A stretch of DNA of 33,248 nucleotides from Oligoflexia bacterium (GTDB lineage: Bacteria; Bdellovibrionota; Bacteriovoracia; Bacteriovoracales; Bacteriovoracaceae), in assembly GCA_015232015.1 (NCBI GenBank), contig JADGAM010000029.1, forward strand, positions 1-33,248. The letters are read 5' to 3'. The position numbers and the translations under genes were made by a program. Each line of letters starts with the position of its first letter. Positions within the stretch are counted from its first letter, which is position 1. Shown here one piece after another: positions 1 to 18,421 of the stretch. The notes below the pieces were generated by a model. The model ran no database searches. It was not told where the DNA came from and saw nothing but the letters and a program-made list of their open reading frames with translations.

Positions 1-76
1 AAATAAAGAAAATTTTTATCATTTTCTTATAGATGAGAATTACTTAACTGATGATGGTTGTAAAAAATGTTTTTAG
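1..76 (+). pseudogene. Truncated copy of the radical SAM/SPASM maturase gene
   Basis: Bases 1-70 match 2747-2816, inside the full maturase gene, with a single difference (A at 21 against G at 2767, His for Arg). Read from base 2, this encodes maturase residues 360-382, including the first two Cys of the C-terminal SPASM cluster. The match stops abruptly at base 70, and the frame ends at a TAG (74-76) after one foreign Phe codon. The last four Cys-cluster positions are therefore lost, so the copy should be inactive even if its upstream part, outside the window, is intact. It shows that a second, very recently diverged copy of the maturase gene exists or existed to the left. Confidence 0.85.
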
Positions 77-970: not shown

Positions 971-1473
971 CTTTCATCCCTTTAAATGGTTATCGATTAT
1001 TACTATTAATAGCAAACAGACATGTCTCCGCCATTCTGTGCATGTTTCAGCATGAGCATTTGGATGATTTAGCAATTACATTCTAAATATATCAATATAG
1101 TATCTCTAATCTACAATATTGAGTATAACTTAAATTTAATGGGCCCATTAAAATTTATCTTAGCAGGTTAGTGTGGAAGTTGGAATACAAAAGCGTTTTT
1201 GTCATAAGTAAGAACTGGCAATATTAATACCCATTCTTTTAAATACAATACTACCACTACTGCTAATACTTTCACCTGAAACTCATTTCCTTGCGGTTGA
1301 AAGCTCTAAAATTTTATTAATCTTTTTTCATATCTTTAAGCTATTTAAAATACAAGAAGAAGTGCAATCCAAAACTAGAATCAATTTGGCCCCATAATTG
1401 CTTCAATATTTACCAAAGGCTAGTCTAATTTTTTTTTATTTTGAAAGGTTTCAAACTTGAAAGGAGTATTGTC
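971..1473. other. Intergenic region between the GNAT gene and the peptide precursor
   Basis: About 500 bases with no credible gene on either strand. It should hold the divergent promoters for the acetyltransferase (minus) and the peptide cassette (plus). Visible elements are a perfect 14-base palindrome at 1137-1150 and a short inverted repeat (TTTGAAA/TTTCAAA, about 1440-1455) just upstream of the precursor ribosome site. No convincing -35/-10 pair could be chosen. Confidence 0.5.
1137..1150. promoter_or_regulatory. Perfect 14-bp palindrome, possible operator
   Basis: TAATGGGCCCATTA reads the same on both strands and is extended on each side by AT-rich, nearly symmetrical flanks. It lies between two divergent genes, a usual place for a dimeric repressor site. 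The binding protein is unknown and the function is inferred. Confidence 0.3.
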
Positions 1474-1602
1474 GTGAAAATTATTAGAAACAAAATCAGA
1501 AAAGAACTAAATTTGGTGTCCAGAAACTTTGGTTGTGGAAATAAATGTGGCGGCCAATGTGGAAACAAATGTGGATGCCAAGGGGATAATCAACACATTT
1601 AA
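1474..1602 (+). CDS. Cys-rich RiPP precursor peptide with CXXX repeats
   Basis: A 42-residue open frame that begins with GTG behind an AAGGAG ribosome site at 1461-1466 with a seven-base spacer. The first 20 residues form a basic, Cys-free leader (MKIIRNKIRKEL...). The C-terminal part is the core: CGNK-CGGQ-CGNK-CGCQ, then GDNQHI. This gives five Cys, four of them on an exact four-residue period, with Gly after each. Small Cys-repeat peptides next to a radical SAM/SPASM enzyme are typical precursors of thioether-crosslinked peptides (sactipeptides, ranthipeptides and the CXXX-repeat families). The peptide is very probably the substrate of the maturase encoded 69 bases downstream. The class of crosslink, the cleavage site (perhaps near residues 20-21) and the activity cannot be told from sequence. 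Confidence 0.8.
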   Translation: MKIIRNKIRKELNLVSRNFGCGNKCGGQCGNKCGCQGDNQHI

Positions 1603-1615
1603 GTAATTTTTAACA

Positions 1616-1657
1616 AAATCCAAAGGTAGTATAAGCTACTTTTGGATTTCTATTTTT
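1616..1657 (+). terminator. Stem-loop with T tract between precursor and maturase genes
   Basis: Bases 1616-1629 pair with 1636-1649: 14 pairs with one G-T wobble and a six-base loop. They are followed by CTATTTTT. This looks like an intrinsic terminator 14 bases after the precursor stop. Partial termination here would make much more precursor mRNA than enzyme mRNA, as is common in RiPP operons. It also shows that the TTG at 1656, which lies in the T tract, is a poor start for the maturase. Confidence 0.7.
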
Positions 1658-1670
1658 GGGAAAACTACAA

Positions 1671-2942
1671 ATGAAATGCTCTAGCTATAATAAATATATT
1701 CAAAAAGATGATAAATTATTTATCTATAATTATTTTACGGGATCAATAGTTGAGATTGAAAATATTAATCATTTTAATGCCCTTAAAAATAATGATCTAA
1801 ATTCTATCTCGGAACAATTAAAGGCCAATCTTGAAGATCAAGGGATAATTATTGATAAACAATTTAACGAAACAAATGAATTAAAATTTTCAAATCTGCT
1901 CGCAAGATATTCTTCGGATACCTTGGGTCTTACTATTGTAAATACTTTAAAATGCAATTTTAAATGCCCGTATTGTTATGAATCTCGTTCTAATCCATCT
2001 TCAATGAGTATTGAAATTCAAAATGCAGTAATTGATTTTGTAAAAAATAAATGGAAAGAATCCAAATTTTCAAATTTATTTATTACTTTTTTAGGTGGAG
2101 AGGTATTTAAAGATGTTGGGTCCATTGATTATATAATGGATAATATCAGCAAGGCGCAAACTGAATATAATTTCAATCTTTCTTGTTCATTAATAACAAA
2201 TGGATTTGAAATTGATCGCTATCTTGACCGCTTAGATAGATGGATGATTAAAGATGTACAAATAACTTTTGATGGAGATGAAACAAATCACAACATCACG
2301 AGATATGATAAAAATAATACGCCTAGCTTTCATAAAATATTTTCAAATATGTTACTACTTCTTGATAAGAACATTGATTTGGCCATTAGACTTAATTTGA
2401 CCACTGAAAATATTGAAGACGGATATTTATTTATTGATCGTTTAAATAAGTTAGATAAAAAACCATATCTATATTTTGGACATGTAAAAAATTATGGGAA
2501 TAGTTGTAATAGTGGTAACTGCCTAAGTAGGAGTGATTTTTCGAATGTTCATTATAAACTAACTGCTTATGCTGTAAAAAATGAAGTTCCTTGTTCAATA
2601 TTACCTAACTTACATTGGAACCACTGTGTGGCCGATACAATTAATGGATATGTAATTGATCCTGATGGGTATTTGTATAAATGTTGGCATTATGTAGGCA
2701 AAAAGGAGAGGTCATTTGCAAATGTTAAAGAGTATCAAAAAATTACAAATAAAGAAAATTTTTATCGTTTTCTTATAGATGAGAATTACTTAACTGATGA
2801 TGGTTGTAAAAAATGTGAGTGTTTGCCTATTTGCATGGGTGCTTGTCCAATGGAAAGGCATGATCTTGGCAATAAAAACTGTACTCATTTTAAATATAAT
2901 GCTGAAAAGTACATTGAACTCTATTGCGAACAAAAGGTATAG
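1671..2942 (+). CDS. Radical SAM/SPASM peptide maturase
   Basis: A 423-residue protein counted from ATG 1671; an in-frame TTG at 1656 lies in the terminator T tract and is less likely. The SAM-binding [4Fe-4S] motif is C95-NFK-C99-PY-C102. A GGE SAM-binding element follows at 142-144. The C-terminal SPASM domain carries C319, C338, C379, C382, C384, C388, C392 and C404, enough for two auxiliary [4Fe-4S] clusters. The N-terminal 85 residues probably bind the peptide leader. Enzymes of this layout cleave S-adenosylmethionine and make thioether or related links on Cys-containing peptides; the upstream CXXX peptide is the obvious substrate. A piece of a second copy lies at 1-76. The ribosome site is weak (GGGA at 1658-1661), which fits low expression relative to the precursor. 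Confidence 0.88.
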   Translation: MKCSSYNKYIQKDDKLFIYNYFTGSIVEIENINHFNALKNNDLNSISEQLKANLEDQGIIIDKQFNETNELKFSNLLARYSSDTLGLTIVNTLKCNFKCPYCYESRSNPSSMSIEIQNAVIDFVKNKWKESKFSNLFITFLGGEVFKDVGSIDYIMDNISKAQTEYNFNLSCSLITNGFEIDRYLDRLDRWMIKDVQITFDGDETNHNITRYDKNNTPSFHKIFSNMLLLLDKNIDLAIRLNLTTENIEDGYLFIDRLNKLDKKPYLYFGHVKNYGNSCNSGNCLSRSDFSNVHYKLTAYAVKNEVPCSILPNLHWNHCVADTINGYVIDPDGYLYKCWHYVGKKERSFANVKEYQKITNKENFYRFLIDENYLTDDGCKKCECLPICMGACPMERHDLGNKNCTHFKYNAEKYIELYCEQKV

Positions 2943-2955
2943 GGTTATAAGTGAA

Positions 2956-4197
2956 ATGAAAAATTTATTTAAAAATGACTTTATAAAATTAACTACAGCG
3001 AGAGAGATAAGCCTATTTGGATCAACACTCTCAGGACTTTTATCAATGTTTTGGATATATGATTTAACATCATCAATAACCCAAACAATTTGGTTTCAAG
3101 TGAGTGGTTATATTTGGGGAACAATTTTAACATTAGTTTTTGCAACTGTGGCCGATAACTATGATAAGAAGAGGCCAGTATTAATTGCAGAATTGGGTAT
3201 GTTTGCAGTTTTTTTAATTTATGGGGTGTTGGCATTCTATAAAATAAAATTACTATGGTTAATATATCTGCTACAGTTTTTTGCGGCAATTTTCAATGCA
3301 GTTCTTTCAACCTTTCTTAGTACGTGGATGATGTCGATATTGAAGGATAATTACCATAGACCGTGGGCCAGATATCAGGCCATAAGATCATTTAATCAAT
3401 TTTTATTCTTAAGCATTGCTGGAGTGCTAAGTGGATTGTTATCTTTCTGGGTAGTATTTATTATTGATGCTTTTACTTATTTGCTGGCATTTGTAATTGA
3501 GTTACAAATTGTGAGTACAGAAAAAATAAGCATAAAAATCAAAGAATTATTTTCTATGTCCTATATCATAAATGATTACAAAAAATGCTATTACTTCATA
3601 AAGAATGAACATCAATATCTTTTTATAATTTGCTGCCTATGTATGCTCTTTAATTTTCTTTCTGTACCTCTTGGAGACATGTTGCCATTTTATGTAAAAG
3701 ATATTTTTAAGGAGACTCCTACATTTTATTCTTTTCTTCTTATGGCCGGAACAGCAGGCGGATTAGTCGCTGTATTACTATTACAAAATGAAACTAAATA
3801 TAATCATTTTTCTATAAAAATGATTTGTTTTGTAATGCTCATTGAAGGATTATTGGCCATAGTATTTAGTGCCCTCAATAACAATAATAAATGGTATGCA
3901 ATTCCAATCCTATTTTTTGTATTCCTAACAGTTACAATTTTTAATATTAGTACAAGATTATTGTTAAGATCGGCAGGGGTTAAATATTTTGCTAAACTAA
4001 CCTCATTCATTGACACTCTATCAAGTCTATTTATTCCTCTAGGTTTATTATTTTCCACCTATCTTTCACAACAAAGCAATTTACAAGGAGTCTATCTTTA
4101 TAATGGATTAGGTTTAATCATACTATTTATATTAACAACATCAACATTAATTTTAACAAAAACTATTAGGTTTTACACAAGAAAGGAATTGGCATGA
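2956..4197 (+). CDS. MFS transporter, probable exporter of the modified peptide
   Basis: A 413-residue polytopic membrane protein with roughly 10-12 hydrophobic helices. The loop after helix 2 has the Major Facilitator motif A in the form A-T-V-A-D-N-Y-D-K-K-R-P. The overall look is that of the MFS_3/drug or siderophore exporter group. The open frame extends upstream into the maturase gene, but those 53 codons are the maturase in another frame. The ATG at 2956, with AGGG at 2941-2944, leaves a proper cytoplasmic N-terminus. It starts 13 bases after the maturase stop and overlaps the next gene by four bases, so maturase, transporter and secreted protein form one operon. Export of the mature peptide is inferred from position only. 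Confidence 0.8.
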   Translation: MKNLFKNDFIKLTTAREISLFGSTLSGLLSMFWIYDLTSSITQTIWFQVSGYIWGTILTLVFATVADNYDKKRPVLIAELGMFAVFLIYGVLAFYKIKLLWLIYLLQFFAAIFNAVLSTFLSTWMMSILKDNYHRPWARYQAIRSFNQFLFLSIAGVLSGLLSFWVVFIIDAFTYLLAFVIELQIVSTEKISIKIKELFSMSYIINDYKKCYYFIKNEHQYLFIICCLCMLFNFLSVPLGDMLPFYVKDIFKETPTFYSFLLMAGTAGGLVAVLLLQNETKYNHFSIKMICFVMLIEGLLAIVFSALNNNNKWYAIPILFFVFLTVTIFNISTRLLLRSAGVKYFAKLTSFIDTLSSLFIPLGLLFSTYLSQQSNLQGVYLYNGLGLIILFILTTSTLILTKTIRFYTRKELA

Positions 4198-4823
4198 AAC
4201 TCTACAAAATTAAATTTTTAATTCTTGCATTATTAACTGAATTTTATAGTAATAATATTTTTTCAATGGAAACATTTATGGGAATGACTAATTTAAAAGA
4301 TAAAAACTTTGATTCGCTTAAAATTATTGGAATGAGCAATTTGAGTAATGTAATTATAAAAAACAACTTAGAGATTATAGGTGCAACCACATTTGAAAAT
4401 AATATCAAAGTAAATGGTAAAATAAGTATTGTGGGTCCAGTTAAAATAAACAAATCATATATAAACACAGGTAAAATAGTAGGTTCATTAAAGGCAGTGG
4501 AATCAGATTTTGCAAATGAATTAAAAGTCATTGGATTAGTTGAATGTAGTCAATGTAATTTTAAGTCTGAGATAGAAATAATATCAAATAAATCAATCTT
4601 TACTAATTCTGAACTATCTACCATTAAAATCATGAAGAATGAAAATGATGGCAGTGATGATAGTTCAAAAGAAAATTCTACTTCGGTTAAGAAAAAGCAG
4701 ATTTTAATCCTAAAGGGTAATACAAAAGTTAATGGTGATGTAATCTTTGAAGATCAAAACAGCGAATTAATTCTAGATAAGAATGTAAAAATATCTGGTA
4801 AAATAATCAAGGGTAATGTTTAG
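4194..4823 (+). CDS. Secreted beta-solenoid (bactofilin-like) protein of the peptide cassette
   Basis: A 209-residue protein with an N-terminal signal sequence (hydrophobic residues about 8-16, cleavage perhaps near 24). The rest is made of short repeating strands rich in I, V, G, N and K (for example LKIIGMSNL, LEIIGATTF, IKVNGKISIVG), the pattern of right-handed beta-solenoids such as polymer-forming bactofilins. A low-complexity Asp/Ser/Lys segment (about 150-167) interrupts the solenoid before a final strand set. Its ATG overlaps the transporter TGA (ATGA), and GAAAGGA lies just upstream, so translation is coupled. Bactofilins are usually cytosolic; a signal-bearing version next to a RiPP exporter suggests a periplasmic or surface partner, or an immunity or scaffold protein. 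No homologue is recognised with certainty. Confidence 0.65.
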   Translation: MKLYKIKFLILALLTEFYSNNIFSMETFMGMTNLKDKNFDSLKIIGMSNLSNVIIKNNLEIIGATTFENNIKVNGKISIVGPVKINKSYINTGKIVGSLKAVESDFANELKVIGLVECSQCNFKSEIEIISNKSIFTNSELSTIKIMKNENDGSDDSSKENSTSVKKKQILILKGNTKVNGDVIFEDQNSELILDKNVKISGKIIKGNV

Positions 4824-5399: not shown

Positions 5400-5424
5400 T
5401 AACAATTTGATTTTTAAAAGAAGA

Positions 5425-6050: not shown

Positions 6051-6068
6051 AAAACTGGGAGGTTTTAT

Positions 6069-6452: not shown

Positions 6453-6454
6453 TT

Positions 6455-6811
6455 ATGCAGATAAAACTAATTCAGCAAATTAAGCAAACCCTACTAGAGA
6501 AACAAAAAATAATTTTAAATAGATATTTTTATGTTTTTTTATTTATAGCAATTATTTTAGTTAGTAGCGATTTATGGGCCATAACTATTGGTGCTGGTGG
6601 TTTCGAAGGTAAAATAAAAAATCTTCAAGACAAATTTTTAAATGTAATCCTACCCATTGTGGCCATATTCGGACTTGGTTATGCTGGTATTTTAGCGGCA
6701 ACAGGAAATGAAGGAGCTAAAGGCAAGATTGTTCTTTGTTTAATTGGTAGTGCAATTGCGTTCTTGGCCCCATATATAATTGCCTTCGTTCAAAATGCAG
6801 TGGGGAACTAA
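6455..6811 (+). CDS. VirB2/TrbC-like conjugative pilin precursor
   Basis: A 118-residue protein with the layout of VirB2/TrbC pilins: a long basic leader (1-24), a hydrophobic signal helix (about 25-42) with likely cleavage after W-A near residue 43, then a Gly-rich mature part with two transmembrane helices (about 62-81 and 93-113) separated by a short polar loop (TGNEGAKGK). Mature subunits of this type assemble the conjugative pilus. ATG 6455 follows a good site (AAAGGAGAG, 6438-6446). The stop overlaps the next ATG by one base (TAATG), so pilin and VirB3 are coupled. Confidence 0.8.
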   Translation: MQIKLIQQIKQTLLEKQKIILNRYFYVFLFIAIILVSSDLWAITIGAGGFEGKIKNLQDKFLNVILPIVAIFGLGYAGILAATGNEGAKGKIVLCLIGSAIAFLAPYIIAFVQNAVGN

Positions 6812-7134
6812 TGGGCCTAAAAACATCAGTGGTTTATAAAAACCTGAATCGCAAAATTAAGTTATTTGGAATGGAATTAGAGGATATTTTAATTTTAGCA
6901 TTCTTTTCGTCCATCATGAATTTATTGTTTGGTAGAACAAGTCTATCTTTCTTGATGGTTTTTATTCTTCCTCTGATAATAGGGATCATTTTATATTGGA
7001 GCAAAAAAAATAAGAGTGAAAAATATTTACAACATTATATCTTATTTCTAACTCTTCCTGGCCACTTTTCGGTTGGTGAGAGTAATGAATATGACAAAAA
7101 ATTAAAAAGGAAAATATATGACAACAAATACTAG
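6811..7134 (+). CDS. VirB3/TrbD-like inner-membrane protein
   Basis: A 107-residue protein with one hydrophobic hairpin (about residues 26-62) and a polar C-terminal tail, the size and topology of VirB3/TrbD. These proteins lie between pilin and VirB4 genes and work with VirB4 in pilus assembly at the inner membrane. The N-terminal lead (VVYKNLNRKIKLFGMELED) is like the family pattern before the first helix. The 3' end overlaps virB4 by 17 bases, so translation is coupled. Confidence 0.75.
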   Translation: MGLKTSVVYKNLNRKIKLFGMELEDILILAFFSSIMNLLFGRTSLSFLMVFILPLIIGIILYWSKKNKSEKYLQHYILFLTLPGHFSVGESNEYDKKLKRKIYDNKY

Positions 7135-9589
7135 ACCGACCCTTGCAAATTTTATTAATTTTTGGCATTTTGATAATGATTTAATGGTACATCAAGATGG
7201 ATCAATCGGAAAAGGATATCATTTACAAGGAATTGATATCTCTGTGCAAACTGATGATGAGATCAATAGTTTAAATGAGAGTATTGAAAATTTTATTGGT
7301 ATTCTTCCTGAAAACTATAGATATCAGTTTTATTATCGCTTACTACCTAATGTTGAAAGTGAAATTGAAAAACATAAAGCAATATCCGCCTCTGCTCACT
7401 TTGAAACTATTATCGAAAGTAGAATTGATTTTTTAAGGGATAAGGCCAGCAAAGGAGCATTCTTTTCTCCAGATTTATATCTATTTGTTAGGAGTGCGCC
7501 CTATCCTCATAAAAAATTAAAGTTAATTGAAAGAAATAAGAAATTTCAAAATTTAAGCATTGAGGAATATTCCTCTCAAAAAGAGATCTTTTTAAATTCA
7601 CTAAAAGGAATTGAAAGTGCATTAATGGGCATTACTTCAAGTTTTAAAAGTATCTCTAGAGAAGAATGGTTTCAACTTCTCTACGAGTATTTTAATTTAT
7701 CAAGATCAGAAAATTTGATGGTTCCGAAATTTCAAGATAATGGTCATCTATTAACACCGAATTTGTTAGAGCAATTTTTTCTAACTGATCTATTTTTAGA
7801 AAAAGAGAGTATTAAATTGGGCAAATACTTTTTTAAATTATTAACTTTAAAAATATTGCCGGAATATACAAGTTCATCAATGATTGAGGCGTTTTTAAAG
7901 ATTCCATTTCCTCTTATTTTATCTCAAAGTGTACACATTGAAGATCAGGCCAAGGAAATGAATAAATTAAAACTGACTAGAAGAATGACCCACTCCTTTT
8001 TATTTGAGAGTAATAAGGGGATTCGTGATCTTGAATCTGAATCTAAGTTAAATGATATTGAGCAATTGATGACTGAATTAATTGAAAGTAATGAAAAAAT
8101 TGTAAATACAGATATGAATGTTTTAATTTGGGGAATTACTTCAGATGAAATTGAAAAGAAAAAAAATGTAATCCTTCAGGCCTTTAAAGATATGAACCAA
8201 AGTGAAGGATTAGAAGAAACAATTCCATCTATCTATGGTTTTATGAAGATGATCCCTGGTCACTGTGAACTATTTCGAGATAAACAGATGAAGAGTAGCA
8301 ACTTGGCCCATCTTTTGCCAATGTATTCTTGTTGGAAAGGTAATGATCGATCAGTATGCTTGCTTTCAAATAGGAATAACAATTTAGTTTCAATAGATCC
8401 ATTTGATTCTAAATTACCCAACTGGAATGGTTTTGTAGTGGGATCTTCTGGGAGTGGAAAAAGTTTTACCTTAAATTCGTTAGTTTCAATGTTTTGTTGT
8501 GATGATCCAGCTCCCAAAATAGTTTGGATTGATAATGGAGAATCCTCAAGAAATTTGGTGGAGATTTTTGATGGGCAATTTGTAGATTTGCGATTGGACT
8601 CAAAGATCTGTTTTAATTTATTTGACCTTGATGTAGGAGACACCACTCCTCCGGCCTCAAAAGTTAAATTAATTTTAGCGGTATTAGAATTAATGTTTAG
8701 TGAAAGCGAAATTGGTAACAAAGGACTATCAAAAATTGATAAGGCCGAATTAGAGGAGATGATCTTTGAGCTATATAAGCATAAGCAAAATAAAAATAAT
8801 GAAAGGTTACGGCCCACAACTAAAACATCGAGGCCTGCACCAACACTTAGTGATTTTAAATCATTATTGGAAAAACACCCCTCTGAGAAGATAAAAAAAT
8901 ATGCAAAAATCTTATACTCTTGGACAGGTGATCGTTCGTATGGTTCCATTCTAGATGGAGAAACCAATGTTATGCTAAGTAAAAATTTGGTTTCTATCGA
9001 AATGAAAGGATTAGATGCCTATCCCGATTTACAAAACGTATTACTGTTACTACTAACTGACTTTATTAGAAGAGAGGCCTCGAAAAATATTGAGCAAAAA
9101 TATCTTTTGATTCTTGATGAGTCATGGAAACTTTTTGAAAGCGAAAGTGGTGCCTCCTTTGCAGTTGAGGCCTATAGAACTTTCAGGAAAAGTAATGCTG
9201 CGATTTGGTCGATATCACAAAACATTAATGATTTTAGAGGAAAGGAAAGCATTGCAAATGCAATCATGCAGAACTCTCCAAGTAAAATCATTTTAAAACA
9301 ACGTGGGGTTGATTATGATTCTTTTAAAAATTTGCTTGGATTAAAAGATGTTGAGATTGAATTAATAAAATCATTGAAGCAAGTTAAAGGAAAATTTTCT
9401 GAGCTTTATTTTATTCAAGATAATCATTCGGCAGTATTGGTACTAGAACCAGATCCTCTAAGCTATTGGATATGTACTACTGATCCAATCGATAAGGCGA
9501 TAATAGAACAATATACCAACAAATATCCTAAAATGAGTAAACTTGATGTTCTAAAATTAATATCTAAAAATGAGGTTCACAAATGTTAA
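7118..9589 (+). CDS. virB4: VirB4-family type IV secretion ATPase
   Basis: An 823-residue ATPase, the usual size of VirB4/TrbE/TraC. The Walker A motif is G442-S-S-G-S-G-K-S449 and Walker B is Y662-LLILD667-E668-S-W. The RecA-like C-terminal domain includes the conserved arginine-containing strand FRKSNAAIWSISQNIND after Walker B. The N-terminal half is the membrane-associated assembly domain. VirB4 drives pilus assembly and substrate transfer at the inner membrane. ATG 7118 has AAAAAGGA seven bases upstream. The gene overlaps virB3 (17 bases) and the next gene (7 bases). It is the most certain member of the secretion operon. Confidence 0.93.
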   Translation: MTTNTRPTLANFINFWHFDNDLMVHQDGSIGKGYHLQGIDISVQTDDEINSLNESIENFIGILPENYRYQFYYRLLPNVESEIEKHKAISASAHFETIIESRIDFLRDKASKGAFFSPDLYLFVRSAPYPHKKLKLIERNKKFQNLSIEEYSSQKEIFLNSLKGIESALMGITSSFKSISREEWFQLLYEYFNLSRSENLMVPKFQDNGHLLTPNLLEQFFLTDLFLEKESIKLGKYFFKLLTLKILPEYTSSSMIEAFLKIPFPLILSQSVHIEDQAKEMNKLKLTRRMTHSFLFESNKGIRDLESESKLNDIEQLMTELIESNEKIVNTDMNVLIWGITSDEIEKKKNVILQAFKDMNQSEGLEETIPSIYGFMKMIPGHCELFRDKQMKSSNLAHLLPMYSCWKGNDRSVCLLSNRNNNLVSIDPFDSKLPNWNGFVVGSSGSGKSFTLNSLVSMFCCDDPAPKIVWIDNGESSRNLVEIFDGQFVDLRLDSKICFNLFDLDVGDTTPPASKVKLILAVLELMFSESEIGNKGLSKIDKAELEEMIFELYKHKQNKNNERLRPTTKTSRPAPTLSDFKSLLEKHPSEKIKKYAKILYSWTGDRSYGSILDGETNVMLSKNLVSIEMKGLDAYPDLQNVLLLLLTDFIRREASKNIEQKYLLILDESWKLFESESGASFAVEAYRTFRKSNAAIWSISQNINDFRGKESIANAIMQNSPSKIILKQRGVDYDSFKNLLGLKDVEIELIKSLKQVKGKFSELYFIQDNHSAVLVLEPDPLSYWICTTDPIDKAIIEQYTNKYPKMSKLDVLKLISKNEVHKC

Positions 9590-10293
9590 AAAATATTTTT
9601 ATATTTTTTGTATGTGCTTTAATAAATATTCCATTTGTAGATCCAAGTTATGCATTTATAGGAATCGGAAGTGCAGCTTCATCTTTGGCCGAAATTCCAT
9701 ATCTAGCAAAAATACTAGTGCAATCGATTAAGCAGTATGAGCAACTTAGATTAATTATTGCCCAAGGAAAAGGAAACGAATATTTACTTCGTACAATTAA
9801 TGATGGCATTAATAATGCCCAAGGATTATTGCAATCTCTACCAGTTCAAGGTGACGGTGTTCTTGATGAGATCAAACGATCTCGTAATAGTTATTCTTTA
9901 ATTGAAGATTTGTATGGTGAAACAGAAAAAAGCTCAGAAGGAAAATTACTTGAGTTACATGACAAAACAGTGGCCGAAAGTATAAAGATGGCCGTTTCAC
10001 TTGATGATTATGCTAAAACACAGGAGGAAAATTCTAAAATGATCTTTCGCCAAAGTGAATCGGCCAGTCCCAAAGGTGCAATGAGAATGAATGCTCAAGT
10101 AAATTCGCAAATACTGCATACACTCTCACAACTTTTAAAAGTTAATGGTCAAACATTAAAATTACAGAGTGAAATTCTAGGTCTTAATAACAAAAATGAA
10201 AAGGAATCGCTAAAACATTTTCGCAAAATCAACATGGATATCAGTAACAACCAATTAAACTCAAAATTAGATTTTAAATTAAATAAGTTTTAA
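9583..10293 (+). CDS. VirB5/TrbJ-like periplasmic transfer protein
   Basis: A 236-residue exported protein. A signal peptide (hydrophobic 3-16, cleavage about residue 24, YA-F) precedes a mostly alpha-helical, coiled-coil-rich body with many Gln, Lys and Leu, and the segment MRMNAQVNSQILHTLSQLL near residue 168. Size, helical content and position directly after virB4 fit VirB5/TrbJ, a minor pilus or pilus-tip component important for contact with recipients. Its ATG is inside the last codons of virB4 (AAATGTTAA), so translation is coupled. Sequence alone cannot separate VirB5 from TrbJ. Confidence 0.7.
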   Translation: MLKNIFIFFVCALINIPFVDPSYAFIGIGSAASSLAEIPYLAKILVQSIKQYEQLRLIIAQGKGNEYLLRTINDGINNAQGLLQSLPVQGDGVLDEIKRSRNSYSLIEDLYGETEKSSEGKLLELHDKTVAESIKMAVSLDDYAKTQEENSKMIFRQSESASPKGAMRMNAQVNSQILHTLSQLLKVNGQTLKLQSEILGLNNKNEKESLKHFRKINMDISNNQLNSKLDFKLNKF

Positions 10294-10356
10294 TTCATTT
10301 GATGGCCCATAATAATCTAATTTTTATAACCATTAAAGATATAAACGAGGTTTTAA

Positions 10357-11238
10357 ATGTATGAATGGTTACCTGATGTTTGTCGAGAACTTAAAGGAAA
10401 TATTGTTCATCTTTATTGGGTGTTAATAGTTCCTTATGCAATTTTTACAATTATTTTAGAATATTTTAATATTGACCGCAGTGAATATCCTAATGTCCTT
10501 AATGTTATCAAGCGAGTTGTTTTATCGATAATATTGTTAATCTCTTTTGATGAGTGCTTACATGTGGTTGCAGAATTAACCGAAGGTCTTGTTGAAAAAA
10601 TTGGAGGAATTACTAATTTAAAAATTGTATTGGATGAAATTTCAAAGAAAAATGAAGAGATCACCTTAAATTGGATTAAATTAAAGGAATTTATTATTTT
10701 CACTCTGAATTTACTTTCTTATATGGTGGCCTATCTTGGAATATTTGTGGCCAATGCTCTAATACACTTTATATGGAGTATTTTGTATATTGTTTCACCA
10801 CTAATGATACTGATGTTTGTAAATGAAAGAACATCTTATATTACCTCTAATTTATATAGAGGAATATTATCGGTTGCTGTTTGGAAGGTGCTTTGGGCGA
10901 TTTTGAGTGTGTTATTGCTTAAGTTTATCACCTCTAACAATTTAACTAGCGATACCGGTGATAATTTTATGACTACAATTTTGATAAATTTCTTTATTGG
11001 AGTCAGTATGCTGTTTGTTCCTATTACCGCCAAATCGTTAATCAATGATGGATTTGATTCTTTAGGACATCATTATGCTCAAATTTCAAGCTCGGCCATA
11101 TCTCAAACAGTTAAGAAGTTCACTACTAATGTTACTAAAGGGACGCTAAACAGAGGATGGACAGGAACAAAAAATCTAGGCGGGCGCGCTTTCAATGTAG
11201 TTAAAGAAAGGATGAAACCAAAATCAACTAAAACGTGA
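10357..11238 (+). CDS. VirB6/TrbL-like polytopic membrane protein
   Basis: A 293-residue membrane protein with about five to six hydrophobic segments (about 15-37, 50-65, 105-150 as a double span, 165-190, 205-225) and a polar, basic Gly/Lys-rich tail after residue 240. This is the topology of VirB6/TrbL, an inner-membrane channel component, and it lies in the expected place after the VirB5-like gene. GAGG lies eight bases before ATG 10357. Charged residues in the second hydrophobic segment (DECLHVVAELTE) are unusual and may mark a pore-lining or periplasmic part. Confidence 0.7.
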   Translation: MYEWLPDVCRELKGNIVHLYWVLIVPYAIFTIILEYFNIDRSEYPNVLNVIKRVVLSIILLISFDECLHVVAELTEGLVEKIGGITNLKIVLDEISKKNEEITLNWIKLKEFIIFTLNLLSYMVAYLGIFVANALIHFIWSILYIVSPLMILMFVNERTSYITSNLYRGILSVAVWKVLWAILSVLLLKFITSNNLTSDTGDNFMTTILINFFIGVSMLFVPITAKSLINDGFDSLGHHYAQISSSAISQTVKKFTTNVTKGTLNRGWTGTKNLGGRAFNVVKERMKPKSTKT

Positions 11239-11291
11239 ATTAAGTAATTGAAAATAAAAATTTAGTCATATTTATTGGAGGATATTATTTA

Positions 11292-12929
11292 ATGTCTATT
11301 AAATATAATAAAAATATTATGCCATTTTTTGGGGTGGTAATATCTATCGTATTATTGTTTTTAGTATTAAATGGTTGTCATCTTCTAGATGATGAGAAAC
11401 CTACTGATGAAAACAATATTGAAGGTAATAATAAAAATAACAATTCTGAATCAACAGGAACAACAGAAGCACCTGTAATAGAAATCACAACTCCATCACC
11501 AAGTAGTGGCAGTGAAAATGGAAATAGAAATAGCAATGGTAATAACGGTAATAATGGGAATTCAACAACTGAACATCCAGACCCAAGTGTTGTAATAACT
11601 CCAAAACCAATTCCAATACCAATTAAATTTCATTATCCTTATGAAAAATATGATCTATATGTGGGAGTTTGGTTTGGTGATATTATTCCAAAAATTGAAA
11701 GTGGATCTATTAAAAAATTTCTTATGGACACAAATTCAACTTTACCGTTGGGATTAACTTTGGATACTTCAACTGGAATTGTTAGTGGAGTGCCTAAATT
11801 TCCTAAGAAATACTTAAATGAAATTAAAGTGTTTAATGTTACTGTAAATGCCATTGATAAAAATGAACAAGTGGCCGACAAAGTAACGGTCACTTTCACT
11901 TTAAAATCAATTAATGTAGGCGATATTAGTGCAGGAAAAGATTATCTTTGCGCTTTAGCAAAAGAAAATCCATTTGAGAGTGATATTTCTTTAGGAGTTT
12001 TATGTTGGGGAAATTTATCAATATTATCTGATAAAGTTTCTATTCCTCACTTTATTTATCTATCAGATAAAAAGGAGAACTTTGATAGGATTGAAATCAA
12101 TGATAATCAAATTTGTCTTAAAACATGGAGTGAAATTAAATGTAAAACTCATAAAGATAAGAATTTTACTCCTATGTTATCTCTTGATCCCGATAGTTAT
12201 AGTGAAATTACTATTGGATTAGAACATGCATGTGCAATAGAAAATAAAAAAAAGGTTAAATGTTGGGGTAATAATAATTTAGGACAACTGGGAACAAATC
12301 CCCAAACATTAAAAAAATCAAGTCAACCAATTTCAGTGCTAGATTCTGGCAAAGACATTTCAGATATCAGCTCAGGAAATAATCACACTTGTATTTTAGA
12401 TAGTGAGAGTAAAATTTACTGTTGGGGTGATAATAGTTTAGGTCAGCTTGGAGTTTCTGGCACACAATATGGACTTGTTTTAGTACCAAAAATTTCTCAA
12501 GGTAAGATATTAACTTTTAAATCCAAGGAAAACTACAATTGCATAATAGATATGAGCGATAAGGTATTTTGCTGGGGTGAAATGCATTTAAATGGAGTAA
12601 AAAATATTTTTCCTCCAATTGAAATAAAAGGAATTCCTCCTTCTGCTTATGCACTTGATTTAGGTACGGAAAAAGCATGTGCCTCTGATAGTAATAATAT
12701 TTACTGCTGGGGAAATACAAATCAAGGAATAGAAAAAACATCAATTAGCAATGAAAAATCATTTAAATTACAAATTGGAAAAGAATTTATGTGTGCTAAC
12801 TATGGTCTGGGTCTTAATACAGTCTTGTGTTGGGGAAAAAATGATAAGGGTCAGCTTGGTGTTGGCCCAGAATTAAAATATTCGGCCAATCCAATACCTC
12901 CTCTTCCTTGGATCATAGAGCAGATATAA
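11292..12929 (+). CDS. RCC1-repeat lipoprotein with Ig-like domain, in the VirB7 position
   Basis: A 545-residue exported lipoprotein with lipobox LVLNGC and lipidated C29. Residues about 32-105 are a low-complexity Asn/Ser/Thr/Pro/Glu linker. Residues about 116-206 look like a putative Ig (He_PIG, cadherin-like) domain, with the LPLGLTLDTSTGIVSGVP signature. The C-terminal 330 residues hold RCC1-type blades with repeating CWG-N-N-LGQLG motifs (CWGNNNLGQLG, CWGDNSLGQLG, CWGKNDKGQLG) and conserved C-A/C-I pairs, suggesting a beta-propeller with a disulfide in most blades. It lies between virB6-like and virB8-like genes, where short VirB7 lipoproteins (usually under 60 residues) occur. It may replace or decorate VirB7, or act as a surface adhesin for recipients or prey. 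GGAGGA is a good ribosome site. Confidence 0.8.
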   Translation: MSIKYNKNIMPFFGVVISIVLLFLVLNGCHLLDDEKPTDENNIEGNNKNNNSESTGTTEAPVIEITTPSPSSGSENGNRNSNGNNGNNGNSTTEHPDPSVVITPKPIPIPIKFHYPYEKYDLYVGVWFGDIIPKIESGSIKKFLMDTNSTLPLGLTLDTSTGIVSGVPKFPKKYLNEIKVFNVTVNAIDKNEQVADKVTVTFTLKSINVGDISAGKDYLCALAKENPFESDISLGVLCWGNLSILSDKVSIPHFIYLSDKKENFDRIEINDNQICLKTWSEIKCKTHKDKNFTPMLSLDPDSYSEITIGLEHACAIENKKKVKCWGNNNLGQLGTNPQTLKKSSQPISVLDSGKDISDISSGNNHTCILDSESKIYCWGDNSLGQLGVSGTQYGLVLVPKISQGKILTFKSKENYNCIIDMSDKVFCWGEMHLNGVKNIFPPIEIKGIPPSAYALDLGTEKACASDSNNIYCWGNTNQGIEKTSISNEKSFKLQIGKEFMCANYGLGLNTVLCWGKNDKGQLGVGPELKYSANPIPPLPWIIEQI

Positions 12930-12965
12930 TATTATTACATCTTGTTACGACTAGGAGATTTAAGC

Positions 12966-13622
12966 ATGTTTGATAGTGATAATAACAATAAGGAAAACCC
13001 ATTACATCTAAATCATTGGTTTGCAATGAATAAAAATCTTCGATTTTATAAAGTAATGGCCATAGGCAATTTAATGCTTTCACTGATCTTAGTATTCTAT
13101 GTGGCCATAAACGAATTTAAAGCACCTCTTGTGATAGATAATAGTGAGGGGCGAAAGGTCTTTTACCAAACTAAATATAAAGAAATTGAAATTACAGATG
13201 ATGATATTAAATCATTTATTGAAAGATTTTTATACCAAAGATATCAATGGGAAAAATTTTCAATTAAAGACACAATTACAAATATTTCATCCTTTAGTAC
13301 CTCAAGTTTTATAAATATCTTGGAAAAAAATTTAATAAAAGTCGTGGATAAAGAGATGAGCAACGTTAATGCTAATGAAGCAAATAAAAATGAAAAAGGA
13401 GATAAAAATAAAAACGCACAATCATTTTCTCAAAAGATTTTAATAAATACAATTAATGTTACAGATAAAGGTGTTTTAGCGGCAATTGATCGAGTTGTTG
13501 AATTTAATGGATTAAAAGTTGTTTCTCCGCTGCAAGTTTTAATCAACCTAGTTAAAGACAAACCAATACCAAGTAATCCACTTGGTATCTTTGTAAATGG
13601 GATAATTGAACATGAAGAGTAA
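12966..13622 (+). CDS. VirB8/TrbF-like inner-membrane assembly factor
   Basis: A 218-residue protein from ATG 12966, which has AGGAG eight bases upstream (an in-frame TTG at 12942 has none). A polar cytosolic N-terminus of about 28 residues is followed by one membrane helix (about 34-54, IGNLMLSLILVFYVAI). A periplasmic alpha/beta domain follows, containing a Lys/Asn-rich low-complexity loop (about 135-152). This is the VirB8 topology, and the gene sits immediately before virB9- and virB10-like genes. VirB8 is a nucleation factor of the secretion channel. Sequence similarity is low, so the assignment rests mainly on size, topology and order. The 3' end overlaps the next gene by 11 bases. Confidence 0.62.
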   Translation: MFDSDNNNKENPLHLNHWFAMNKNLRFYKVMAIGNLMLSLILVFYVAINEFKAPLVIDNSEGRKVFYQTKYKEIEITDDDIKSFIERFLYQRYQWEKFSIKDTITNISSFSTSSFINILEKNLIKVVDKEMSNVNANEANKNEKGDKNKNAQSFSQKILINTINVTDKGVLAAIDRVVEFNGLKVVSPLQVLINLVKDKPIPSNPLGIFVNGIIEHEE

Positions 13623-14382
13623 AAATTTATTTCAAAATTTGATATTGATTACTTTTACGATTCTAGTTTCGTTTTTAACTAATACCACATTAAATACTAC
13701 TTTAAATGCTGGCATTGTAAGGGATTTAGTTATGGACGACAATCAAATAGAGATAATTAATTTAAGGATGGGTAAATCAACTGTTTTAAATTTCATAGAG
13801 ACACCTTTAAGAATTTCAATCGGTAATAAAAATTATTATAATGTTGAATTTATTGTCAATGATTTAACCATTCAACCCAAGGGTGAAGTAGAAACTAATT
13901 TATTTGTTTATGGAAAATTTCATCGGTACGGTTTTATTTTAAGAACAAATAACATTACAGCTTATGATGATTTGGTAAAAGTTCGCTGGAAGGAAGATTT
14001 GCAAAAAGAGAAAACGGAAAATGTAAAAATCGAAAAGCAAATTGATATAACAAAGGAAATAAAACCTGAACAACTCGAACAAGAAGATTACAAAATCACA
14101 GTAACCAACCTTCAAAATGATAAATTAAGAAATCTCTATATTATCGATCTTAATATTATTAATCAAAGGAGTGTAGAATTGTTTTTAAACAATATCAATT
14201 TCTCTTTTGCTAATAAAAATTCAACAAATCAGATCGTTGAAAAGATATTTTCATGCGACAGCTTAAAGAACAAAGATGACAAGTGCAATGGAAGATTATT
14301 CATGAAAATAATTAAAAATGAAAATTTTAAAATTGTAACTACCTATAACGGGAAAGAAATATTCTTTGAAATAAAGGAGTAA
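13612..14382 (+). CDS. VirB9/TrbG-like outer-membrane complex protein
   Basis: A 256-residue exported protein from ATG 13612 (a TTG two codons earlier is less likely). The signal peptide spans about residues 1-34 (cleavage near LNA-G). The body is beta-rich: an N-terminal domain beginning with I-I-N-L-R-M-G-K-S-T-V-L-N-F, typical of VirB9/TraK-type strands, a charged linker with Glu/Lys (about 128-150), and a C-terminal beta-domain ending EIFFEIKE. Two Cys in the C-terminal domain (CDSLKNKDDKC) may form a disulfide. VirB9 makes the outer-membrane core ring with VirB7 and VirB10. It is located between VirB8- and VirB10-like genes, which supports the call. Confidence 0.65.
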   Translation: MKSKNLFQNLILITFTILVSFLTNTTLNTTLNAGIVRDLVMDDNQIEIINLRMGKSTVLNFIETPLRISIGNKNYYNVEFIVNDLTIQPKGEVETNLFVYGKFHRYGFILRTNNITAYDDLVKVRWKEDLQKEKTENVKIEKQIDITKEIKPEQLEQEDYKITVTNLQNDKLRNLYIIDLNIINQRSVELFLNNINFSFANKNSTNQIVEKIFSCDSLKNKDDKCNGRLFMKIIKNENFKIVTTYNGKEIFFEIKE

Positions 14383-14387
14383 TAGCA

Positions 14388-15398
14388 CTGAAAATAATTA
14401 ATCCTTTTAAAAAAATTAAAAGTTTATTTTTAGAAAAGCATATTGGTAAAATTCGTTTAAAACTTAAAAGCGTATCAATATTACTAGGAATAATATTTAT
14501 TATTATGACTTTTTTTGTTTTATTGCAACCGGAAGCAAATAACAGTTTTGTTAAAACTAGCTTTCAAGAGTTAATAAACAAACAAAAACCTTCAGAAAAA
14601 GTTGAAGTATCGGCCAAGAATAAAGTTTCTATTGAAATACCTCATTATGATCAAAGTAGAGAAAATATAATTTCTGATGATGTTAGCGAAAGGAAACAAA
14701 TAAAAAAAGTAAAATCTATATCTGTTAAAAATAAAGCGGAACCAGTAAATGTTGCAAGTAAATCAACAATAATCTATGAAGCATCTCAAGTTGTTGAACG
14801 AAATGATGATTTATCAAAGAGTAAAAAGATTCTACCTTTTGGAGCATCCTTTGTTGGAAAGTTACTCACTTCAATTGATACCAGAAGAAAAAATAGTATT
14901 GTAAAAATCATCTTACCTTATAATGTTAAACGAAAAGGTGAAACATTTTTACAAAAAAATTCCATACTAATTGGATCAGCAGAATATTCAACACCTGATA
15001 GCAAAGTTTACATAAATATTAATAAGGGAATTCAACCTGAGGGCGATGAATTTGATATTTCTGCAAAAGTAATGAGTGTAAGCGAATCCGATGATGGAAT
15101 TAATGGCGACTATCACAGTAATAAAGCGGAAAAGTTTATAACTTTGCTGGGGATGAACTTAATTGGTGCATCTACAGAAATTTTACAAGATAGAGAGGTT
15201 TATACTAGCAGAGAGGGTATTTCAGTATTGCCAAAAGCAAAAGTAAAAAATGCACTATTAGAGGGTGGAAAAAGAACGATGGACAATGAAATACAAGAAA
15301 TCGAAGATTCTTATAATAAAATAGAACCTTTTGTAACAATAGATGCCGGAGAATATCTAATTGTAAATTTGACCCAGGCATTTAGTTTAAAAGAGTAA
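14388..15398 (+). CDS. VirB10/TrbI-like channel protein, probable CTG start
   Basis: A 336-residue protein if it begins at CTG 14388, which has AAGGAG at 14374-14379 with an ideal eight-base spacer and stands five bases after the virB9 stop. The first in-frame ATG (14505) lies inside the membrane helix and has no ribosome site, so it would remove the cytosolic tail (KIINPFKKIKS...) and half of the only transmembrane segment (SILLGIIFIIMTFFVLL, about 28-46). After a Lys/Ser/Glu-rich linker comes the conserved VirB10/TrbI C-terminal domain (about 145-336): KILPFGASFVGKLLTSIDTR at its start and DAGEYLIVNLTQAF at its end. VirB10 spans both membranes and gates the channel. Confidence 0.82.
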   Translation: MKIINPFKKIKSLFLEKHIGKIRLKLKSVSILLGIIFIIMTFFVLLQPEANNSFVKTSFQELINKQKPSEKVEVSAKNKVSIEIPHYDQSRENIISDDVSERKQIKKVKSISVKNKAEPVNVASKSTIIYEASQVVERNDDLSKSKKILPFGASFVGKLLTSIDTRRKNSIVKIILPYNVKRKGETFLQKNSILIGSAEYSTPDSKVYININKGIQPEGDEFDISAKVMSVSESDDGINGDYHSNKAEKFITLLGMNLIGASTEILQDREVYTSREGISVLPKAKVKNALLEGGKRTMDNEIQEIEDSYNKIEPFVTIDAGEYLIVNLTQAFSLKE

Positions 15399-15426
15399 TT
15401 CTAAATTAAAAGCATAGGAAATGAAT

Positions 15427-16875
15427 ATGAGCAAAAATAATAATGGGATGATAAATTTGAATTTATTTATAAATTCATTTTTATCATCACTTAGTAGTAT
15501 CAAATTTTTAAAAGTTGATACTTGGTTTTTTATCATAAGTGAAATTATCTTCATAAATATTTTTATTAACAAAAAAATTCATTTACTCTTTTGGAGTAAA
15601 TTATTTAAAAGTGAAAAATCAGTTAAGATGTTGCTGTTTTTAATCAGTCACAATCTATTAGTTCACAAAATACTAATCTTCTTAATGATAAATGCACTGA
15701 TTTTATTTTTTATGAGTATAAGCAAATATCTTTTATTAAAAAAGTATCAAAACAATTTAAATCTAATTAAATTAGAAAATGGAGAAAACCAACGTCCACT
15801 CGTTTGCAAAATTAAAAAAATTGATTCTTATAAAACCAAGTTATCGCTTGTAAGTGCAGGTATTGGAATTAATCACTACACAAGTAAGAAAAATGATTTG
15901 GAAGCGGCATTTGGTGAAAAAATTGAAAACATCATTAGTGGAAGTAATCCGAGAAATATTTCAATAACATTCACTAAAAATGTAATAGCAAGGTTAGTAA
16001 ATTTTGATGAATTTGATATTAATAAATTAAAAACGAATCATTTTTTACTTGGTAAATCAATAAATGGATTTGAAATGCAAAATATTAATGAGCTTCCACA
16101 TCTATTAATTGCAGGAACAACGGGCCAAGGGAAAAGTGTGTTCATGAAACAAGTTTTATTAACTTTAATGATAAGCTCGCCTCATTTACAAATATTTATT
16201 TTGGATATGAAAAAAGGTGTGGAGTCAAAAGATTTTCAAGATTTTCCAAATGTCACTGTTGCAAAAGATATTAGTGAAGCATTGCTGGTTTTAAATAAAG
16301 TAAAAAAGGAAATGAACAAACGATTTACTTATTTGGAAGAACATGGGCACAAGGAGATTGACTCTAAAAGAGACAAAATGGATAAACTTATTATCTCTAT
16401 TGATGAGGCATCTCTTCTTTATATGAAAAAAAATGGTGGTGATAATGAAGAAATTCAATTGGTAAATAAAGCAAGAAAAATTACTGATGAATTGGCCAAA
16501 CTATCACGTGCTGCAAACATCAATTTGATCATGGCCACACAAAAGGTAACTAAAGATACAATTGATACTCACATTCAAGAAAACATTAGTGGGAAGTTTT
16601 GTTTAAAGACAAACACTCTTCAAGGATCATTAACTGTTTTAGGTAATAAAATGTCTTATGTTCTTCCTGATATTCCTGGGCGTGGCATTTGGAGTTTGGG
16701 AAGCAATTTTACTGAAATACAGGCAACATACGTTACTTCAGATGATATTAACAAATATAAAGAAATAATAAAAAATAATTTCAAGAAAGGAGAAAGGAAA
16801 ATGTTACAGACAAAACTTGCAATTGAAAAACCTGAAGAGGTTAATATTGAAATTCAAAATGGAGATTTATGTTAA
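15427..16875 (+). CDS. FtsK/TcpA-type coupling ATPase
   Basis: A 482-residue protein from ATG 15427, six bases after AGGAA (another ATG at 15421 is too close to it). Two N-terminal membrane segments (about 35-55 and 73-103) precede a RecA-like motor. Walker A is G-T-T-G-Q-G-K236-S and Walker B is L-I-I-S-I-D326-E-A, followed by NLIMATQKVTKDTID, which is characteristic of FtsK/SpoIIIE-like DNA translocases. Such proteins (TcpA-like) act as the type IV coupling protein that delivers DNA to the channel. Classical VirD4/TraG members are larger and different in motif context. The stop overlaps the next start by seven bases, tying this ATPase to the replication-relaxation protein. Confidence 0.82.
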   Translation: MSKNNNGMINLNLFINSFLSSLSSIKFLKVDTWFFIISEIIFINIFINKKIHLLFWSKLFKSEKSVKMLLFLISHNLLVHKILIFLMINALILFFMSISKYLLLKKYQNNLNLIKLENGENQRPLVCKIKKIDSYKTKLSLVSAGIGINHYTSKKNDLEAAFGEKIENIISGSNPRNISITFTKNVIARLVNFDEFDINKLKTNHFLLGKSINGFEMQNINELPHLLIAGTTGQGKSVFMKQVLLTLMISSPHLQIFILDMKKGVESKDFQDFPNVTVAKDISEALLVLNKVKKEMNKRFTYLEEHGHKEIDSKRDKMDKLIISIDEASLLYMKKNGGDNEEIQLVNKARKITDELAKLSRAANINLIMATQKVTKDTIDTHIQENISGKFCLKTNTLQGSLTVLGNKMSYVLPDIPGRGIWSLGSNFTEIQATYVTSDDINKYKEIIKNNFKKGERKMLQTKLAIEKPEEVNIEIQNGDLC

Positions 16876-17627
16876 AATGCAGAAGAAAAATATGCATAAA
16901 CGACAAAGACTTAAAACTAATCGAGTATCTTTATCTTAACAAAATAGCAAAACCAAACCAAATAAATAGAGATGTACTAGGTGTAGTTTCTAAAACCAAT
17001 GTGAATAGGAGACTCAAACGCTTGTTTGATAATAGGTTAATTGAAAAACATTCTATAGTTGTGAACTCATTTCCTATATTGGCCTATTCACTTTCACAAC
17101 AAGGATTTAATAAATTCATTTTAAACAGTGGTAAAAATTCATTAGTCAAACAATACAAAAGTAATTCGATATTACATGATTTGAATTTAGTTGATATCCA
17201 AAATAGATTTTTATCTTTTAAGGGAGTTAAAAGTTATTATACTGAAAATTTGTTGCGCTCAAAATCAGATTTATCTAGGACGATTTACTCCGATATACTT
17301 GATGGGGTAAATTGCGATGCCGTTATCGAGATAATTACAACATTGGGATCGGAATTGGTACCAGTTGAATATGAGATAAATCTAAAATATGCCCAAAGAT
17401 ATAATAATTTATTTTTGGATTATTATCTAAATCAAAAGATAAAAGCAGTATTTTACATCATTCAAAATGAAGAAATTTTAAATAAAATTGAAAAAATTGC
17501 TAAAGAAAATGGAAAAAACTTTTCACCAAAATTGTATTTTACTACTTTTAAAAAATTTATGGATGCAAACCAAAATGTCATATTCTCCAATATCAATGAG
17601 AAACAAATAATCTTAAAAAAAATTTAA
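16869..17627 (+). CDS. Replication-relaxation family protein (Replic_Relax-like)
   Basis: A 252-residue protein. The N-terminal 90 residues look like a winged helix (DLKLIEYLYLNKIAKPNQI, then TNVNRRLKRLFDNRLIEK). The C-terminal part has H103-D104, D150 and the pair E167-Y-E169 followed by K173, a spacing reminiscent of a PD-(D/E)XK-like metal site. This arrangement matches the replication-relaxation family, found in conjugative plasmids and elements beside FtsK-like coupling ATPases, as here. Its exact biochemical role is not settled. As no classical relaxase is visible, it is the best candidate in the window for initiating DNA processing. GGAG lies before ATG 16869, and the start overlaps the coupling gene. 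Confidence 0.7.
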   Translation: MLKCRRKICINDKDLKLIEYLYLNKIAKPNQINRDVLGVVSKTNVNRRLKRLFDNRLIEKHSIVVNSFPILAYSLSQQGFNKFILNSGKNSLVKQYKSNSILHDLNLVDIQNRFLSFKGVKSYYTENLLRSKSDLSRTIYSDILDGVNCDAVIEIITTLGSELVPVEYEINLKYAQRYNNLFLDYYLNQKIKAVFYIIQNEEILNKIEKIAKENGKNFSPKLYFTTFKKFMDANQNVIFSNINEKQIILKKI

Positions 17628-17644
17628 TTGTATTGCTCACCGAT

Positions 17645-17674
17645 CTGTTGCTAAGGCCAGTTCAGCGACAACAG
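17645..17674 (+). other. Stem-loop in a 200-bp gap after the Replic_Relax gene, candidate oriT or terminator
   Basis: CTGTTG (17645-17650) pairs with CAACAG (17669-17674), and inner CT/AG pairs follow after a three-base bulge. A second small hairpin, GCACC-CCT-GGTGC, is at 17760-17772. The gap lies just after the putative DNA-processing gene, a common place for a transfer origin, but no nick-site motif is recognised. Confidence 0.25.
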
Positions 17675-17828
17675 GAAAGTAAAATAGGATTTTTAAACTT
17701 TATTAATCTTTAAGAGTATTTAAGCGGAAAAAAGAAATTCATAATTTTAACAACTAAATGCACCCCTGGTGCTTAAAACAAACTTTAAAACATATTTAAC
17801 TTTTAATACAATTTCAGGAGGAAAAACT

Positions 17829-18416: not shown

Positions 18417-18421
18417 ATAAT

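What the first reader, a model, noticed from the sequence alone, without database searches (positions are those of the whole stretch)
1474..4823. Four-gene RiPP cassette with a CXXX-repeat precursor, carried near a conjugative element
A 42-residue peptide with core CGNK-CGGQ-CGNK-CGCQ is followed by a radical SAM/SPASM enzyme, an MFS exporter and a signal-bearing beta-solenoid protein, the last three tightly packed (13-base gap, then a 4-base overlap). The Cys/Gly period of four implies repeated crosslinks. The combination of CXXX precursor, MFS rather than ABC exporter, and a secreted bactofilin-like partner is one I do not recognise as described. In a probable predator lineage, mobility with an ICE suggests a peptide used in competition or signalling.
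Basis: partly seen in the sequence, partly recalled or inferred. Interest (0 to 1): 0.8.

Follow-up and report, generated by a model that had tools for sequence, protein, structure and literature searches.

The report
Mobile RiPP cassette with secreted solenoid partner
A conjugative element carries a small gene set that makes and exports a chemically modified cysteine-rich peptide; in related bacteria unrelated peptide-making sets keep the same secreted, rope-like (bactofilin-like) partner protein, an arrangement that does not seem to have been described.

Summary
In detail: a 42-aa Cys/Gly-rich peptide (1474-1602), an intact radical SAM/SPASM enzyme (1671-2942), an MFS exporter (2956-4197, after a 13-base gap) and a signal-bearing beta-solenoid protein (4194-4823, 4-base overlap). 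A perfect 15-bp attenuator-like hairpin separates precursor and enzyme. The enzyme's predicted fold is nearest CteB, a thioether-forming RiPP maturase; it is only distantly related (about 33%) to Clo7bot maturases, passes no NCBIfam cut-off, and the precursor's leader does not resemble Clo7bot leaders.

The new result is the fourth gene. Its family was found in only 4 of 369 genomes of the phylum; in all 5 loci whose neighbourhood can be read it lies beside a radical SAM enzyme, four with an MFS or ABC exporter. Precursors and enzymes differ (one enzyme is of another class), yet the secreted bactofilin-like protein is the best-conserved part (34-50% identity and an invariant CxxC in its close family). 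Position beside a T4SS-integrase-ssrA element makes the cassette probable ICE cargo. Best reading: a radical SAM RiPP system whose exported peptide works with, or is tolerated through, a conserved envelope beta-solenoid. Chemistry and function are inferred. New variant of a known kind.

The parts
1459..1466 (+). Shine-Dalgarno (AAAGGAG) of the precursor gene
   Evidence: sequence
1474..1602 (+). precursor peptide, 42 aa, GTG start, core CGNKCGGQCGNKCGCQ
   Evidence: no family match
1616..1649 (+). 15-bp stem-loop with T-rich tail between precursor and enzyme (likely attenuator giving more precursor than enzyme)
   Evidence: like hairpins in Sarcina p8 and G059:C35
1671..2942 (+). radical SAM/SPASM peptide maturase, 423 aa; CxxxCxxC at C95/C99/C102; N-terminal RRE-like fold
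2956..4197 (+). MFS exporter (MFS_1/MFS_3), 413 aa
4194..4823 (+). signal-bearing bactofilin-like beta-solenoid protein, 209 aa, CxxC at C118/C121
5646..6050 (+). sigma-70 region-4-like protein, first gene shared by the related conjugative elements
6455..18760 (+). T4SS operon (VirB2/B3/B4, VirB9/B10-like, FtsK-like coupling protein, TraV)
19072..20346 (+). tyrosine integrase at the element's right end
20482..20881 (-). ssrA (tmRNA), probable attachment gene of the element
1..70 (+). truncated second copy of the maturase's 3' part at the contig edge (real duplication or assembly chimera)

Best explanation
The four genes make, export and accommodate a radical SAM-modified peptide. Step 1: the precursor is made in excess because a hairpin attenuates transcription into the enzyme gene (inferred from sequence). 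Step 2: the enzyme binds the leader with its N-terminal RRE-like domain and uses its radical SAM and SPASM clusters to oxidise the Cys/Gly core, most likely forming Cys thioethers (fold and cluster ligands shown by prediction and alignment; product inferred). Step 3: the MFS protein moves the product across the inner membrane (inferred). Step 4: the solenoid protein, secreted by Sec, acts at the periplasmic side or cell surface as the constant envelope partner of the peptide: a scaffold or protector for the producer rather than a peptide-specific antidote (inferred from its conservation across unrelated peptides). The cassette is probably cargo of an ssrA-integrated conjugative element (position shown; left boundary not found).
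For: Enzyme: full-length model (pLDDT 83) best matches CteB (5why, E 2.5e-18, aligned over the whole length with the RRE); all radical SAM and SPASM cysteines are present; the nearest families are all maturases of Cys-rich peptides. Precursor: strong SD, period-4 Cys, hairpin. Partner: family found in 4 of 369 genomes; 5 of 5 readable loci beside a radical SAM gene, while enzymes are only about 25% alike or of another class and exporters 20-24% alike or swapped for ABC, and the partner stays 34-50% identical with a fixed CxxC in its close family. Solenoid core predicted at pLDDT about 97. Toastrack-type beta-helix proteins sit in the same place in the Clo7bot plasmid cassette and in a second cassette of the same genus; toastracks are tied to protection against membrane permeabilisation (PMC11237479). 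ICE.
Against: No experiment. The core lacks the Cys-X3-Asp pattern of PapB products and other known acceptors, so thioethers are not certain. Leader similarity to Clo7bot was tested and failed. No conserved precursor ties the cassettes together, and the G060 precursor candidate has no Cys. The partner's bactofilin assignment is below Pfam's cut-off and has no significant PDB fold match. The distant G140 partner lacks the CxxC and its locus has no exporter. The left end of the element was not located.
Confidence: 0.6

Rival explanations
1. The solenoid protein is a peptide-specific immunity protein that sequesters the exported toxin.
For: Last gene of the operon, secreted, next to an exporter; toastrack relatives occur in antimicrobial-stress operons.
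Against: It is the most conserved part across cassettes with unrelated peptides; specific antidotes normally co-vary with their peptide.
Confidence: 0.2
2. The modified peptide is not a toxin but a small metal- or redox-binding peptide or signal, and the solenoid is its envelope receptor or scaffold.
For: CxxxC-rich cores can bind metals (general knowledge); SCIFF ranthipeptides are reported in quorum sensing (reference within PMC8326336); two related cassettes are divergent from a conserved sigma-54 response regulator.
Against: The regulator is absent beside the window's cassette; no direct evidence of signalling; mobility on an ICE fits competition as well.
Confidence: 0.2
3. The cassette is a plain distant Clo7bot-type locus and the solenoid gene is a neighbour without a role.
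For: Best NCBIfam hit is the Clo7bot maturase; CxxxC cores are similar in style.
Against: 219 bits against a cut-off of 600; leader test failed; tree does not join them with support; solenoid gene overlaps the exporter gene by 4 bases and recurs in 5 of 5 loci.
Confidence: 0.1
4. The short ORF is not the real precursor (or the cassette is decaying; the contig edge shows a broken copy).
For: No homologous peptide found; 70-bp broken repeat of the enzyme at the contig end.
Against: Strong SD, hairpin, period-4 Cys right before an intact enzyme; all four window genes are intact.
Confidence: 0.07

Closest known systems
Clo7bot Cys-rich peptides with maturase CtpM (TIGR04334), Paraclostridium bifermentans plasmid
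   Same: about 33% identical enzyme, CxxxC-spaced short precursors upstream, exporter and a beta-helical (toastrack-type) protein downstream
   Different: below the family cut-off (219 of 600 bits), different leader, one precursor instead of many, ABC exporter there, a toastrack-type protein without an evident signal sequence instead of a secreted bactofilin-like protein
Sarcina sp. JB2 plasmid p8 locus
   Same: small ORF, hairpin, radical SAM enzyme (32%), MFS overlapping by 4 bases
   Different: its small ORF has a single Cys and no solenoid gene follows
CteB/SCIFF and PapB ranthipeptide maturases
   Same: fold with RRE, radical SAM and SPASM domains (CteB)
   Different: 16-18% identity to CteB, below family cut-offs, no Cys-X3-Asp or six-Cys SCIFF precursor
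Bactofilins (PF04519)
   Same: beta-solenoid; two relatives of the partner score E 3.9e-6 and 1.9e-5
   Different: below gathering score, signal sequence instead of cytoplasmic, no PDB fold match at E < 0.001

Membership tests
radical SAM/SPASM RiPP systems | CxxxCxxC radical SAM motif and SPASM cysteines | tested here: met
radical SAM/SPASM RiPP systems | N-terminal RRE | tested here: met
   predicted strand-strand-strand-helix-helix-helix at residues 1-80; full-length match to CteB; predicted only
radical SAM/SPASM RiPP systems | small precursor gene adjacent | tested here: met
radical SAM/SPASM RiPP systems | modified peptide product | not testable with these tools
   needs mass spectrometry
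Clo7bot (TIGR04334) | maturase above the curated cut-off (600 bits) | tested here: not met
   218.7 bits
Clo7bot (TIGR04334) | MKFIxKP-type leader | tested here: not met
   499 of 500 leader shuffles score at least as well
CXXX-repeat target family (TIGR04115) | maturase above cut-off (350 bits) | tested here: not met
   55.9 bits
CefB (NF038107) and TIGR04463 | maturase above cut-off (600 / 525 bits) | tested here: not met
   202.5 and 189.5 bits
PapB ranthipeptides (NF047865) | maturase above cut-off (340 bits) and Cys-X3-Asp/Glu core | tested here: not met
   115.7 bits; no such pattern in the core
bactofilin (PF04519) | Pfam gathering score 27.9 | tested here: not met
   14.1 bits; closest relative 27.5
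bactofilin (PF04519) | cytoplasmic polymer | not testable with these tools
   signal sequence argues for export; polymerisation unknown
integrative and conjugative element | T4SS operon, integrase, tRNA/tmRNA site | tested here: met
integrative and conjugative element | both attachment sites | tested here: inconclusive
   left end beyond the contig; no repeat found
integrative and conjugative element | relaxase | tested here: inconclusive
   none among the window proteins scanned; not all ORFs were scanned and it may lie off the contig

The most novel reading that the evidence does not exclude
The secreted bactofilin-like solenoid is the defining and constant module of a new class of RiPP systems in this phylum: interchangeable radical SAM peptides are exported and then bound or covalently fixed (perhaps through the conserved CxxC) on a periplasmic or surface solenoid, giving peptide-armed or peptide-protected envelope structures that spread on conjugative elements.
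Probability: 0.15. Interest if true: 0.8.

Novelty: new variant of a known kind. Interest (0 to 1): 0.55.

Why it matters
RiPP cassettes are usually defined by their precursor and enzyme. Here the constant part is a secreted structural-type protein while precursor, enzyme class and exporter change, which suggests a shared step after export that is not part of the radical SAM RiPP pathways known to me. It gives a searchable marker (the solenoid family) for finding precursors that have no common sequence, and a concrete, testable link between bactofilin/toastrack-like solenoids and peptide natural products.

Tried and rejected
Clo7bot membership: rejected by family score, leader profile and unsupported tree position. 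Peptide homologues in plasmids: none; MFS and solenoid in plasmids: none. Solenoid family in viral contigs: none. Close enzyme relatives in order and phylum: none above about 30% identity; direct scan of genome contigs with the single protein: none. Weak solenoid hits in six other genomes were looked up: no related radical SAM enzyme beside them (one weak radical SAM hit about 7 kb away in L173); the two re-scored ORFs look like a prepilin and an FHA-type protein. PDB fold match for the solenoid: nothing significant. Second ICE attachment site by tmRNA/tRNA 3'-end repeats: not found. MFS as a common exporter among other-phylum relatives: not among their 25 commonest neighbour families; ABC dominates.

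Full report
What is in the sequence. The window is a whole contig (G000:C221) of a 413-contig genome. The precursor starts at GTG 1474 after AAAGGAG; the enzyme at ATG 1671; the MFS gene at 2956 after 13 bases; the solenoid gene at 4194, overlapping by 4. Between precursor and enzyme lies a perfect 15-bp stem with a T-rich tail; similar hairpins lie between small ORF and enzyme in Sarcina p8 and in G059:C35. Four Cys at period 4 occur once in the window and rarely by chance.

The enzyme. It carries CxxxCxxC and the SPASM cysteines. Its best NCBIfam models are three maturases of Cys-rich peptides (Clo7bot 219 bits, CefB 203, TIGR04463 190), all far below their cut-offs. The predicted structure (pLDDT 83) has an RRE-like N-terminus and matches CteB best, then TigE and anSME. 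A 53-row tree leaves it on a long branch without supported sisters. So it is a radical SAM/SPASM peptide maturase outside the named families; thioether formation is the most likely chemistry by kinship and Cys content, but the core has no Asp/Thr acceptor arrangement of known ranthipeptides (compare PMC8326336).

The precursor. Its core looks like the Clo7bot CxxxC style, but a profile of 26 Clo7bot-like peptides taken from five Clostridia loci does not recognise its leader: shuffled leaders score better. I therefore dropped the idea that it is a Clo7bot peptide.

The fourth gene is the real finding. A search of the phylum with the solenoid protein found a narrow family: a second copy in the same genome (C65), one in the same genus (G059:C35) and two in another genus (G060); a profile added G140 from another family of the phylum. 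Reading the neighbourhoods: C65 has a broken radical SAM gene, MFS and solenoid; G059:C35 has two short peptides ending SINCCCGKGGLNN and GINCCCGVGSNN, radical SAM, ABC exporter and solenoid; G060:C27 has a Gly-rich Cys-free 41-aa peptide, MFS, radical SAM and solenoid; G140 has radical SAM, a 441-aa protein without a Pfam match, a signal-bearing 76-aa peptide ending GCVSNSGCGAT and solenoid, with no exporter seen. The sixth lies at a contig end. Thus all five readable loci (the window's own included) pair the solenoid with a radical SAM gene. With about six such genes in a 4.9-Mb genome, a random gene would lie within 5 kb of one about 1% of the time; the loci share ancestry, so this is only a rough guide. 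The weak hits in other genomes have no related radical SAM enzyme beside them (one weak hit lies about 7 kb away in L173).

What changes and what stays. The enzymes are 25-27% identical, and that of G060 belongs with mycofactocin/StsB/WgkB-like enzymes, without a detectable BLAST match to the window's. MFS proteins are 20-24% identical to the window's, or replaced by ABC. The solenoid is 34-50% identical in the close family, with an invariant CxxC (the distant G140 protein lacks it). It begins with a signal sequence (VSA/ALA-type cleavage sites in relatives) followed by a beta-solenoid predicted at pLDDT about 97. Pfam Bactofilin hits relatives at E 3.9e-6 and 1.9e-5, just under the gathering score; no PDB fold match is significant, so 'bactofilin-like' is a sequence-level statement. 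A second cassette type in the same genus (G059:C20) has Cys-rich peptides, radical SAM, ABC and a secreted DUF4097/toastrack-like protein (weak match) in the same slot, and the Clo7bot plasmid of Paraclostridium has a toastrack-type protein there. Toastracks are beta-helix proteins associated with envelope-stress systems and protection against permeabilisation; the paper places them inside the cell, unlike the secreted proteins here (PMC11237479). No paper in the held library contains both 'bactofilin' and 'radical SAM'; subscription papers are not covered.

Mechanism. Shown (by sequence or prediction): intact operon, maturase fold, signal sequence, recurrence. Inferred: precursor-to-enzyme ratio set by the hairpin, Cys oxidation to thioethers, export by MFS, and an envelope role of the solenoid. 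Because the solenoid is better conserved than any other part while peptides differ, a generic role (scaffold, anchor or broad protection of the producer) fits better than a peptide-specific antidote.

Mobility. 5646-18760 is a T4SS operon syntenic with elements in other genomes of the order (VirB4 in 24 of 129). The window's integrase abuts the 3' end of ssrA, and related elements abut tRNA-Asp or tRNA-Ala or lie near tmRNA. The cassette lies about 0.8 kb outside the first conserved backbone gene, on the side away from the integrase, so it is probably cargo; the left boundary is off the contig and no att repeat was found. Related cassettes lie near a tyrosine integrase (G059:C35), a serine-recombinase-type protein (G060:C27) or an IS transposase (C65).

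Verdict.

Noticed in passing
window 1-70: 70 bp, 99% identical to 2747-2816 in the enzyme gene, then a stop: a truncated second copy or an assembly chimera at the contig edge.
   Followed up: partly
L024 (G000:C65) 1-480: Radical SAM gene appears as two overlapping pieces on opposite strands at the contig start, again suggesting a chimeric contig end or inversion.
   Followed up: no
L023 (G000:C35) 5606-7312: Signal-bearing 78-aa peptide ending SECCGPYSQCFCGSAFIGG directly before another radical SAM enzyme, no exporter: likely a Sec-exported RiPP.
   Followed up: partly
L022 (G000:C398) 10615-12328: 61-aa peptide ending CSCYDSQKCWDWW before a radical SAM enzyme 37% identical to that of C35: a further RiPP locus in the same genome.
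   Followed up: no
L021 (G059:C20) 4933-8759: Radical SAM, two peptides with GACCLSGACCKGG cores, ABC-2 exporter and a secreted toastrack-like protein; the same contig also carries an ICE of this family about 43 kb away.
   Followed up: partly
L020 9063-10648 and L139 10875-12581: Conserved sigma-54 response regulator followed by a 69-70-aa ORF, divergent from the cassettes in two genera; absent beside the window's cassette.
   Followed up: partly
window 44-970: GNAT acetyltransferase on the opposite strand; GNATs are also among neighbours of distant radical SAM relatives (3 of 36 proteins).
   Followed up: no
window 11292-12929: RCC1-repeat and Ig-domain protein inside the T4SS operon, kept in two of three related elements of the same genus (L159, L161).
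   Followed up: no
window 22635-22776: Perfect 71-bp tandem duplication outside the element.
   Followed up: no
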